Of a DNA stretch of 64,000 nt, positions 56,456 to 63,278 are shown piece after piece. The stretch lies in NCBI GenBank assembly GCA_014193115.1, contig BJHQ01000007.1, forward strand, positions 159,729 through 223,728, in the 5' to 3' direction. The notes under the pieces are model-generated. The model had not been told where the DNA came from. It searched no databases and was given only the letters and a program-made list of their open reading frames with translations. The stretch comes from Planctomycetota bacterium (GTDB taxonomy: Bacteria; Planctomycetota; UBA11346). Numbering within the stretch: the first letter of the stretch is position 1; every line of letters begins with the position of its first letter. The translations under genes and the position numbers were made by a program.

Positions 56456-57391
56456 GTGGAGACCGAGATCGAGCGCCTGCGCAAAAAGGTCGAGAACTTC
56501 CCCTCGGCTTCCAGCTACAACCGGCTCGCGGAGCTGGCTCGGATGGCTGGCGACCATGCCGAAGCCGAGCGTGCCTGCCGGCGTTGCATCAAGGAATTCC
56601 CGCGCAACGGCCAGGCCTATCTGATCCTGGCGGAAATGGCCTTGGCCGGCAGCAAGCGCGACGAGGCGGTCCAGCTGGTCGGCACCGCCATCGAAAAAGA
56701 CCCGCGCAGCTACACCGCCCACAAGATGATGGCGGATTTCCTGATCCAGGATGGCAACCTGCCCCAGGCCCTGGCCCACCTGCGCCAAATTCTGACCTTC
56801 AAACCGGGCGATCCGGTCATTACCCAACGGGTGGCGGAACTCGATAAGAACGCGCCTCCCGGCCAACCCAAGACGCAAACCATCACCAAGCCGGCTGGCA
56901 CCGGTCCGGCGAAACCATCCGCCCCCGGCCCAGCGCCAGCCAGCGGAAACAGCCCGCCGCAAGCGGCTCCGACCCCGGCCCCCGGTTCCGGGTCCCGCCC
57001 TGCGGTGTCGCCCATTGTCGGCGCCGTTCCGGTGATCAAACGCCCGCCCCGCGGCCCGGTCCTGGATCCCCTGTGCGCCGAAGCTGGAGTGGTCGGTGCC
57101 TTGGTGGCAGACGCCAGCGGGCGGGCGGTTTTGGCCAAGAATCTCAAGCCGGAGCAAGAGGAAATCCTGGCGGCGCTAGCCGCTGAGCTGGGCAAAGCCG
57201 GCCAGTCGGCCCTGGCCGCCATCGGCCAGTCCAAGACGGCGACAGTGGTCTTGTCCGCGGCCAACGGCCAGGTCCTGCGTTTCGCCCGCGACCAAGGCAT
57301 GGCGGTGGTCATCTTGGCCAATCCCGGTATCCGTCCGGCCATGCTCGAACTTCGCGCCCGCCAGGCGCTCATCGACCTGGGAGCCGGCTAA
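56456..57391 (+). CDS. TPR - Roadblock/LC7-like protein
   Basis: TPR helices (YNRLAELARMAGDHAEAERACRRCIKEFPRNGQAYLILAEMAL), Pro/Ala linker, then GVVGALVADASGRAVLAKNL... Roadblock-like domain. Confidence 0.72.
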   Translation: METEIERLRKKVENFPSASSYNRLAELARMAGDHAEAERACRRCIKEFPRNGQAYLILAEMALAGSKRDEAVQLVGTAIEKDPRSYTAHKMMADFLIQDGNLPQALAHLRQILTFKPGDPVITQRVAELDKNAPPGQPKTQTITKPAGTGPAKPSAPGPAPASGNSPPQAAPTPAPGSGSRPAVSPIVGAVPVIKRPPRGPVLDPLCAEAGVVGALVADASGRAVLAKNLKPEQEEILAALAAELGKAGQSALAAIGQSKTATVVLSAANGQVLRFARDQGMAVVILANPGIRPAMLELRARQALIDLGAG

Positions 57392-57739
57392 ATGGATGAA
57401 ATCCTGGTCCAGCTCAACCGCGTCCGCGGAGTCGGAGGCTCGCTGCTCTGCTCCGCCGATGGCCTGCCGATCGCCACCGCCTTGCGCGAAGGAGCGGATG
57501 AATCCCGGCTCGCCGCCGCGGTGGCGTCGTTGGTCGAATCCGCCAGCCGGATGGCCAGCATGCTCCAGCTCGGATCCGTCGCGAGCACCGCCGCCACCAG
57601 CGACACCGGCAGCATCCTGCTGCTCGCCGCCGGCAACGCCTATCTGGTCATCGTAGCCGATCCGGCAGCGAATCTCGCCCTGCTCCAACTCGAGGCCAAA
57701 CCATTTGTCGAGCGGATCGCCCAGCGGCTGTCGCTCTGA
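57392..57739 (+). CDS. Roadblock/LC7 (MglB-like) protein
   Basis: MDEILVQLNRVRGVGGSLLCSADGLPIATAL...GSILLLAAGNAYLVIVADPAANLALL; ATG abuts the previous TAA. Confidence 0.82.
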   Translation: MDEILVQLNRVRGVGGSLLCSADGLPIATALREGADESRLAAAVASLVESASRMASMLQLGSVASTAATSDTGSILLLAAGNAYLVIVADPAANLALLQLEAKPFVERIAQRLSL

Positions 57740-62600: not shown

Positions 62601-63278
62601 AGCGGCGTGGTTCCTTACAAGCCGCTGACGCTGCCCGGCGAACTGACCGGCCAACCGTTCGTCGAACGCTCCGGGTTGCAGACCGTGCTGTACCTGCCCG
62701 CGGGGAACCTGCTCGTTTCCTATGATATCGGCTCGGTTACCGAATCGTCTCCTCCCAAGCCGCTGAATCAGATCAAGGCCCGCGGTGATCTGATCGGTCA
62801 GGCGGTGCGGGCCACGGCCGCCGGCAAGTCGGTGGTCCTGCTCACCGATTCCTCTGGACTGGTCATCGCATTCGACCCGGGCATCGGCGTCGATGAAGGC
62901 CGCCGAACGGTCGGTGGCTGGGCCTTGGATGGAACTTCGCCGTCGAATCCGGTGGTCGATGGAAGCATGGCGTACATCTCGGTCTCCGAAGGTCGCGTCC
63001 AGGCCATTGATCTGAACAAGTCCGGGGTGGTCGCGTGGCGGTTCCCAGCCCAAGGATCCACCGCCGGCCTGCTCGGTTCGGTCGCCCGCGGCAAGCGCGG
63101 CGTCTATGCCGCCGACGCCAATGGAACCCTGTATTGCATCGATGCAGCCAATGGCTCGCTGCATTGGAAGGCGCCGCTCGGCGGAGGGGCCAGCGCCGGC
63201 GTCGCTGCCCTCGACGGCTTGGTCGTCGTTCCCCTGGCTACCGGTCAGCTGGTCTGCTTCGACGAAGGCGACGAATAG
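59682..63278 (+). CDS. DUF4388 (PATAN-like) - TPR - TM - PQQ-like propeller protein
   Basis: MGFQGELNSVSLGDIFQTLHMNRQTGTLSV...; TPR region; single TM IVAWAALVLMLIGAGVVGWEYW; C-terminal propeller blades such as GVYAADANGTLYCIDAANGSLHWKAPLGGG. Confidence 0.85.
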   Translation: MGFQGELNSVSLGDIFQTLHMNRQTGTLSVGADQDPGSAVHVWFDQGLVAACSAPIADGRPFLINTLLKKNLLSQDVADDLVRRMRSTNQASRDLLLASNVVAENDLDEVSTWCIEEIACPIFERTVGEFRFSDGDPLDVLAGPNTIWMGGTRIQTSQLVLEATRRRDEWQRIREVITDSEALYQVDADGRTNLRNVQTDPEMLKVLRYLDGRHTLDSIAAVVGVTRFDTYAITSQLVLAGVARARTPQEVVEDAVTLRAQGETQKARDLLENILRSARVPEVLRPLAEACAALNQVPRAVELFLELIQRSQDSGDLETALKDLDTVIQLSPEDPDLQFERAQIQGELGRLDEAASGYVAAAQVFLTTKETPRAIDACHRAKNLLPRSPEPHRWLAKAYLMDGATDNATVEYKALWHALLSSNSPTKALRELRSILDTDCKFASVKESVLAHAQSSEAVKTSRTMRIVAWAALVLMLIGAGVVGWEYWRGVIVTRNGQEAVAEVKQTFNSTRESLPHKVLLDELTSIRSQYASVKEVVKLAEDTENEIRKDFDQRASNLLAEAQAYLRGGLFDKAYQSLTRLKADFAGTRSAGVADARIEELRSTRIGVEVLSVVDDARRKWTAQDWDEAINQLKPVLARNDLPLELKNEYQSLSLEWTSALGSAQELLARARKIRANGDRRAAIVALRRAATGQGESAVSLAKNELAEVESEVIADIGLRARTAASKGDDAGAFAAVEELLAVAKQSTSSTVQGQALATELPFTVTVDHPRTVLQIARPNTETVLIRAPADASGRWTHALTYRLGEQVVVAAARPGFTTASLTVSVQGKRSTGSLALTRGPRWSIPLSGVGTVGPVVFDRQVMIGTNRASIEVVDVHAQQGSSRPINFGEGVAEFRYPPTRHGNTVLAVVDERIFGVDLATRAVAWSWPTLGSRIAVAGPACAHENELIPGQSLVFAGAGRNGLAILAVDSSSGVVPYKPLTLPGELTGQPFVERSGLQTVLYLPAGNLLVSYDIGSVTESSPPKPLNQIKARGDLIGQAVRATAAGKSVVLLTDSSGLVIAFDPGIGVDEGRRTVGGWALDGTSPSNPVVDGSMAYISVSEGRVQAIDLNKSGVVAWRFPAQGSTAGLLGSVARGKRGVYAADANGTLYCIDAANGSLHWKAPLGGGASAGVAALDGLVVVPLATGQLVCFDEGDE

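What the first reader, a model, noticed from the sequence alone, without database searches (positions are those of the whole stretch)
56456..63278. Five-gene MglA/Roadblock operon with three Roadblock proteins and a membrane-spanning propeller protein
Seen: same-strand genes with 0, 30, 2 and ~120 nt gaps encoding TPR-Roadblock, Roadblock, an MglA-like GTPase, Roadblock, and DUF4388-TPR-TM-propeller. Established: MglA (Ras-like GTPase) and MglB (Roadblock GAP) form the polarity switch for gliding and type IV pili in Myxococcus, and DUF4388/PATAN proteins occur in related signalling. Inference: three distinct Roadblock partners plus a TM effector suggest a GTPase switch transmitting across the membrane, different from the canonical mglBA pair. 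Best candidate in the window for an undescribed system.
Basis: partly seen in the sequence, partly recalled or inferred. Interest (0 to 1): 0.82.

Follow-up and report, generated by a model that had tools for sequence, protein, structure and literature searches.

The report
Membrane-anchored MglA switch with three Roadblocks
This planctomycete carries a conserved gene cluster for a Ras-like on/off switch that, unlike its relatives in gliding bacteria, is tethered to the cell membrane and encoded with three Roadblock regulators and a membrane-spanning partner; it tends to occur with type IV pili, so it probably controls where or when pili work.

Summary
The five genes are real, at the stated coordinates and on one strand. 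Together they are the complete MglA/Roadblock equipment of this Planctomycetota genome: all three Roadblock domains found genome-wide lie here. Gene order A (TPR-Roadblock), B (Roadblock), C (GTPase), D (Roadblock) is kept in about 13 other families of the phylum. E (PATAN/DUF4388-TPR-TM-propeller) lies next to the four in most, on either side, and elsewhere in some genomes.

The GTPase has a textbook Group 1 MglA G domain but continues into a Pro/Ala-rich linker and a single C-terminal transmembrane helix, found in 226 of 238 homologues. The 2014 survey of prokaryotic Ras-like GTPases dropped sequences over 240 aa and does not mention planctomycetes. My searches of the held library found no paper on the system.

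D is MglB-like (conserved alpha2 and Ct-helix); A and B are not. Roadblock presence tracks a high-scoring (T4aP-type) PilM across the phylum (50/53 versus 8/48 genomes; 28/31 versus 5/22 families), including co-loss within families.

Verdict: a new variant of the MglA/MglB switch, probably controlling type IV pili. Complex formation, polarity and output are inferred.

The parts
56456..57391 (+). Gene A: TPR-Roadblock protein, 311 aa. TPR residues 1-132 (56456-56851), disordered linker 133-200, Roadblock domain 204-307 (57065-57376)
   Evidence: ORF; Pfam TPR and Robl_LC7; AF2 model with pLDDT >90 in both domains; Roadblock half matches solved Roadblock structures at TMt 0.76-0.82
57392..57739 (+). 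Gene B: single-domain Roadblock protein, 115 aa
   Evidence: Pfam Robl_LC7 53.5 bits; nearest PDB sequences are archaeal and actinobacterial Roadblock proteins, not MglB
57770..59035 (+). Gene C: tail-anchored Group 1 MglA GTPase, 421 aa
   Evidence: Thermus MglA 3t12 E=1e-76 and Myxococcus MglA E<1e-72; tail anchor
57770..58354 (+). C, G domain, residues 1-195 (GPGMSGKTTN, TDRT with intrinsic Arg, TVPGQ, NKRD)
   Evidence: TVPGQ in 161/161 homologues, DRTL in 160/161; alignment to 3t12
58748..58804 (+). C, transmembrane helix, residues 327-345, preceded by basic residues and followed by a Pro/Ala-rich tail
   Evidence: Mean hydropathy 3.47 over 19 residues; one such segment in 110/120 and 116/118 homologues
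59038..59562 (+). Gene D: MglB-like Roadblock protein, 174 aa, with conserved C-terminal helix (…LDNLFGDL, 59518-59559)
   Evidence: M. xanthus MglB 6izw E=7e-19, alignment reaching the Ct-helix; NF052242 MglB 63.6 bits, below the equivalog cut-off of 200; alpha2 is the most conserved region
59682..63278 (+). Gene E: PATAN/DUF4388 - winged helix - TPR - TM - helical repeat - beta sandwich - propeller, 1198 aa
   Evidence: Pfam; AF2 model mean pLDDT 88; propeller matches BamB structures
61080..61136 (+). E, transmembrane helix, residues 467-485
   Evidence: Hydropathy; TM in residues 430-520 of 108/112 full-length homologues; low-pLDDT break at the same place in the model
62211..63275 (+). E, predicted periplasmic BamB-like propeller, residues 844-1198
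   Evidence: AF2; Foldseek to BamB TMt about 0.70-0.76, E=1e-11 to 1e-10

Best explanation
The cluster encodes a membrane-tethered version of the MglA/MglB small-GTPase switch. C is a Group 1 MglA fixed in the inner membrane by a C-terminal helix, with its G domain facing the cytoplasm on a flexible linker. D is the MglB-type GAP (and, through its C-terminal helix, possibly exchange factor) that resets C. B and the Roadblock half of A are additional Roadblock subunits that probably assemble with D, or with each other, into a scaffold that localises or tunes GTP hydrolysis, with A's TPR as the input or docking arm. C-GTP, or the Roadblock scaffold, engages the cytoplasmic PATAN-TPR half of E, which passes through the membrane to a periplasmic propeller. 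The most likely output is spatial or temporal control of type IV pili. Shown by computation: domain content, catalytic motifs, tail anchor, MglB-like nature of D, topology elements of E, conservation of order, genome-wide co-occurrence with T4aP-type PilM. Inferred: orientation in the membrane, all protein contacts, the roles of A and B, and the pilus output.
For: Conserved order A-B-C-D in f1 and about 13 other families, E adjacent in 11 of them. No other conserved neighbour apart from shadow ORFs and, within f1, cdsA on the opposite strand. All Roadblock domains of the genome are here. Group 1 MglA motifs in essentially all homologues. One TM after the G domain in 226/238 homologues with net positive charge before it. 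D keeps MglB's alpha2 and Ct-helix (Ct-helix role from PMC6785124). PATAN genes were noted near some mglA genes (PMC4316618), and the TPR protein SgmX binds MglA directly in T4P control (PMC11580455). Roadblock-positive genomes have a strong PilM in 50/53 versus 8/48 (Fisher 2e-16), by family 28/31 versus 5/22 (1e-6). Within families f1, f31 and f33 the Roadblock-negative members lack strong PilM while positives have it; f8 agrees except genus g100. Own genome has PilM, and PilB near PilT.
Against: PilT-family ATPases are in 200/200 genomes, with or without the GTPase, so pili-like machinery does not require this system. The PilM contrast depends on the score threshold: at the curated cut-off of 133 bits it is 51/53 versus 34/48, and 183 bits was chosen after seeing the data. 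Eight Roadblock-negative genomes have a strong PilM, and G146 is Roadblock-positive without PilM. No T4P gene is a conserved neighbour. E is not always adjacent.
Confidence: 0.55

Rival explanations
1. Conservon-like signalling: the GTPase/Roadblock module is a membrane signalling complex in which E senses a periplasmic cue with its propeller and sets the nucleotide state of C, with an output other than pili (gene expression, development or kinase cross-talk).
For: Actinobacterial conservons combine a membrane sensor, an MglB-type Roadblock and an MglA-type GTPase in one operon (PMC4316618). A in one family carries an FHA domain between TPR and Roadblock, and the same genome holds an MglA-like GTPase fused to a Ser/Thr kinase, which hints at phospho-signalling.
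Against: No kinase or transcription factor is a conserved neighbour. The GTPase is Group 1 (the motility type), not Group 2. Co-occurrence with PilM favours pili.
Confidence: 0.2
2. Envelope-assembly or cell-shape control: C and E position or gate an envelope machine, with the BamB-like propeller of E docking on periplasmic or outer-membrane components.
For: The propeller of E matches BamB best among solved structures, and E spans the inner membrane.
Against: PQQ-type eight-bladed propellers are common and the match is at 15% identity, also to designed propellers. No Bam or envelope-assembly gene is linked. Half the phylum lacks the system, unlike an essential assembly function.
Confidence: 0.12
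3. Core switch is A-B-C-D only; E is an independent PATAN protein that happens to be near.
For: E is on either side of the core, and on another contig in some relatives such as G002 and G003. The genome has 7 other DUF4388 matches.
Against: Adjacent to the core in 11 of the distant families examined and in many f1 species. With a profile built from f1 sequences, most genomes with an E match also have the GTPase.
Confidence: 0.2

Closest known systems
MglA/MglB polarity module of Myxococcus xanthus and Thermus thermophilus (with MglC, RomR/RomX, RomY, SgmX)
   Same: Group 1 G domain with TVPGQ and intrinsic Arg; an MglB-like protein next to it with conserved alpha2 and Ct-helix; more than one Roadblock protein (MglB plus MglC in M. 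xanthus); T4P association.
   Different: GTPase carries a long linker and a C-terminal TM helix; three Roadblock genes in one operon, one fused to TPR; a PATAN-TPR-TM-propeller partner; phylum Planctomycetota. RomR, RomX and RomY were not searched for.
Actinobacterial conservons (CvnA-D; Group 2 MglA)
   Same: Operon with GTPase, Roadblock and a membrane protein forming a membrane-associated signalling unit.
   Different: No histidine kinase; GTPase is Group 1 by motif (TVPGQ rather than GTPGQ); it is itself membrane-anchored; three Roadblocks rather than one.
Group 1 Rup GTPase neighbourhoods
   Same: A small GTPase encoded with a protein that has an inner-membrane helix and a periplasmic domain.
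   Different: Rup systems have no MglB homologue and carry an OmpA-type domain and a c-di-GMP or kinase output (PMC4316618); here Roadblocks are central and the periplasmic part is a propeller.
Eukaryotic Ragulator (membrane-anchored Roadblock scaffold for Rag GTPases)
   Same: Several Roadblock subunits linked with a Ras-like GTPase at a membrane (analogy only, from general knowledge and the discussion in PMC9481161).
   Different: Here the GTPase, not the scaffold, holds the membrane anchor; no orthology claimed; a heteromeric scaffold is not shown.

Membership tests
MglA family, Group 1 (Wuichet & Sogaard-Andersen) | G3 motif TVPGQ | tested here: met
   161/161 sequences; definition from PMC4316618
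MglA family, Group 1 (Wuichet & Sogaard-Andersen) | Intrinsic arginine next to the G2 threonine | tested here: met
   DRTL in 160/161; aligned with MglA of known structure
MglA family, Group 1 (Wuichet & Sogaard-Andersen) | NKxD G4 motif | tested here: met
   NKRDL in 149/161; window protein has QYNKRDL
MglA family, Group 1 (Wuichet & Sogaard-Andersen) | Coupled to an MglB/Roadblock gene within four genes | tested here: met
MglA family, Group 1 (Wuichet & Sogaard-Andersen) | Single-domain GTPase of at most 240 aa (size filter of the survey) | tested here: not met
   421 aa here with linker and TM; homologues mostly 300-500 aa. This is the survey's selection rule, not a functional criterion
MglB (GAP of MglA) | Roadblock/LC7 fold | tested here: met
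   D: Pfam and MglB structures at E=7e-19
MglB (GAP of MglA) | Conserved alpha2 surface and C-terminal helix | tested here: met
   D: alpha2 identity 0.86 and Ct 0.76, separated by a linker at 0.49; Ct-helix function from PMC6785124. For B, alpha2 is at 0.55
MglB (GAP of MglA) | NCBIfam equivalog NF052242 above its cut-off | tested here: not met
   63.6 bits against 200; the model is specific to Thermus-type MglB, so D is MglB-like, not that equivalog
MglB (GAP of MglA) | GAP activity on the cognate GTPase | not testable with these tools
   Needs a GTPase assay
Conservon | Histidine-kinase-like CvnA and CvnC in the operon, Group 2 GTPase | tested here: not met
   No such gene in the cluster; G3 is TVPGQ
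Front-rear polarity module | Polar, switching localisation and effect on motility | not testable with these tools
   Needs microscopy; only co-occurrence with PilM was tested

The most novel reading that the evidence does not exclude
A permanently membrane-tethered MglA paired with a heteromeric three-Roadblock scaffold (A-B-D): a bacterial, Ragulator-like membrane platform in which the GTPase never leaves the membrane and nucleotide state only changes its partners, passing the signal through E to the periplasm. Nothing here excludes it, but no contact was shown.
Probability: 0.25. Interest if true: 0.85.

Novelty: new variant of a known kind. Interest (0 to 1): 0.62.

Why it matters
In eukaryotes Ras-like GTPases usually work by membrane attachment, while studied MglA proteins are soluble and recruited. 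A Group 1 MglA with a built-in tail anchor, conserved across roughly half of Planctomycetota, shows another solution and was outside the main survey because of its size filter. The fixed set of one MglB-like and two divergent Roadblocks around a single GTPase gives a natural system for asking how Roadblock proteins combine into GAP or exchange complexes. If the pilus link holds, it offers a handle on surface behaviour in a phylum whose cell biology is poorly known.

Tried and rejected
A GTPase-MglB fusion (P0326) looked like fusion evidence, but the junction falls in a broken TM segment right before the normal start of D, so I treat it as a probable frameshift. PilT presence/absence was useless (200/200). 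PilT copy number is higher with the GTPase (5.3 versus 3.1 on average; families p=6e-5), but it is capped at nine scored candidates and not corrected for genome size, so it is only a hint. Conserved flanking genes were sought across 27 loci: only shadow ORFs and, in f1, cdsA; Pfam of selected flanks gave unrelated genes. Scans for PATAN/DUF4388 in the literature gave nothing specific.

Full report
What is there. Five same-strand genes occupy 56456-63278 with gaps of 0, 30, 2 and 119 nt. Pfam assigns TPR+Roadblock (A), Roadblock (B), Ras/Arf-type GTPase (C), Roadblock (D) and DUF4388+TPR+PQQ propeller (E). The window is the end of a 223.7-kb contig of a 5.25-Mb, 94%-complete genome; named relatives are Planctomycetota metagenome assemblies. 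Genome-wide, Robl_LC7 has exactly three matches and all are in this cluster. There is one orthologous MglA; the only other GTPase match is a distant domain fused to a protein kinase.

The GTPase. Its first 195 residues are MglA: best PDB match Thermus MglA (E=1e-76), then Myxococcus MglA. The Group 1 hallmarks given by Wuichet and Sogaard-Andersen (PMC4316618) are met: TVPGQ in 161/161 homologues, the intrinsic Arg in 160/161, NKRDL in 149/161. After the G domain comes a Pro/Ala-rich linker, a basic stretch and one strongly hydrophobic helix (residues 327-345, mean hydropathy 3.47). A single such segment is found in 110/120 close homologues and 116/118 homologues from another part of the family. 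In the latter the chain ends a median of 9 residues after the helix, a true tail anchor; in the window's own family a Pro/Ala-rich tail of about 80 residues follows. Most of the sequences without a TM are shorter than their neighbours or end in unrelated sequence, as expected of truncated or frameshifted records; that explanation was not tested one by one. Two complete-looking loci (L030, L062) end instead in a basic, possibly amphipathic stretch. TM calls rest on hydropathy alone. The 2014 survey kept only sequences of 240 aa or less and its text does not contain 'planctomyc', which would explain why this form was missed.

The Roadblocks. D is the MglB-like one: M. xanthus MglB at E=7e-19, aligned through to the C-terminal helix; NCBIfam MglB model at 63.6 bits, under its cut-off. 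In D the alpha2 region is the most conserved part (0.86) and a conserved C-terminal helix (…LDNLFGxL) follows a variable linker. In M. xanthus that helix binds MglA allosterically and promotes exchange (PMC6785124). In B, alpha2 is among the least conserved parts (0.55) and both ends are most conserved, so B is not simply a second MglB; its PDB relatives are archaeal and actinobacterial Roadblocks. A is a TPR domain, a disordered linker and a Roadblock domain in a confident model, the last matching known Roadblock structures; in one family A also carries an FHA domain. The conservation comparison uses 11-18 sequences and is indicative.

E. AlphaFold2 on 61 sequences gives mean pLDDT 88: PATAN domain, winged-helix-like region and TPRs (1-461), a low-confidence break at the hydrophobic helix (467-485), helical repeats (492-758), a beta sandwich and a propeller (about 844-1198). 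Foldseek puts the propeller on BamB (TMt about 0.70-0.76 at 15% identity), which supports a BamB-type fold but not a Bam function. 108/112 full-length homologues have the TM. pTM is 0.48, so the relative placement of the parts is not reliable.

Conservation. A-B-C-D occurs in fixed order in the window's family and in 13 other families examined with enough contig around (L051-L055, L057-L060, L062, L065, L066, L068); E is adjacent in 11 of them, upstream in most, downstream in two, with two copies in L054. In some f1 relatives E is on another contig. Exceptions: orphan GTPase in G045 and in genus g6 (G006, G017), where no Roadblock is found anywhere in the genome. No other gene is a conserved neighbour. 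Across 200 genomes of at least 85% completeness, 108 have a GTPase match at E<=1e-20; I counted 103 as the orthologous type.

Link to pili. PilT is universal in the phylum and uninformative. PilM scores differ: in the same 101 genomes, best PilM of at least 183 bits occurs in 50/53 Roadblock-positive and 8/48 negative genomes (p=2e-16); by family 28/31 versus 5/22 (p=1e-6). The threshold was set after looking at the data, and at the curated cut-off the contrast is 51/53 versus 34/48 (p=7e-4). Genomes are not independent; the within-family comparisons are more telling: f33 (one positive genome with PilM 199 bits against five negatives at 109-133), f31 (positives 177-212 against one negative at 133-138), f1 (genus g6 negative, PilM 171-172 against 189-212) and f8 (three g20 genomes with neither, G109 with both, but g100 with PilM and no Roadblock). 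Three genomes scored as lacking the GTPase but having PilM (G129, G148, G211) turned out to have Roadblocks, so some absences are assembly gaps. The own genome has PilM, and PilB near PilT. Together this supports, but does not prove, a T4aP connection, in line with what MglA does in Myxococcus (PMC11580455).

Mechanism. Most likely: C is a membrane-fixed MglA whose nucleotide state is set by D, helped by B and A; active C engages E or pilus components. A tethered GTPase could not cycle on and off the membrane, so regulation would be by clustering or partner choice. The steps from structure to function are inference.

Novelty. Within the held literature nothing describes this system: no paper holds MglA together with Roadblock and Planctomycetes, none MglA with Planctomycetota, and the four that hold MglA and Planctomycetes appear unrelated from their titles and abstracts. 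Subscription journals are largely missing from that library. It is a new variant of the MglA/MglB kind: ordinary switch domain, new anchoring, new subunit set, new host phylum.

Noticed in passing
G000:C1:363748 (L070 7731-11141): A second MglA-like G domain (40% identity) fused to a Ser/Thr protein kinase domain in one 1136-aa protein; GTPase matches inside long open frames (about 600-1500 aa) recur in many genomes of the phylum and may be the same fusion.
   Followed up: partly
L055 4069-5655 (family f17): Gene A homologue with an FHA domain between the TPR and Roadblock domains, suggesting phosphopeptide input.
   Followed up: no
G074 (9.5-Mb single contig): Eight MglA-like matches in one genome, the most in the listed set; identity of the organism unknown.
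   Followed up: no
G006 (L067 8483-10072) and G017: Tail-anchored-type GTPase without any Roadblock in the genome and with low PilM and PilT counts: an orphan switch.
   Followed up: partly
L054 4762-14885 (G024): Two E-like genes flank one A-B-C-D cluster.
   Followed up: no
window 55341-56264 (-): Divergent cdsA-like phosphatidate cytidylyltransferase gene (Pfam CTP_transf_1); a reverse-strand ORF at the corresponding place recurs in several f1 relatives.
   Followed up: partly
window 63519-63998 (-): An open reading frame runs off the contig end 720 bp after the cluster, so the downstream neighbourhood cannot be read here.
   Followed up: no
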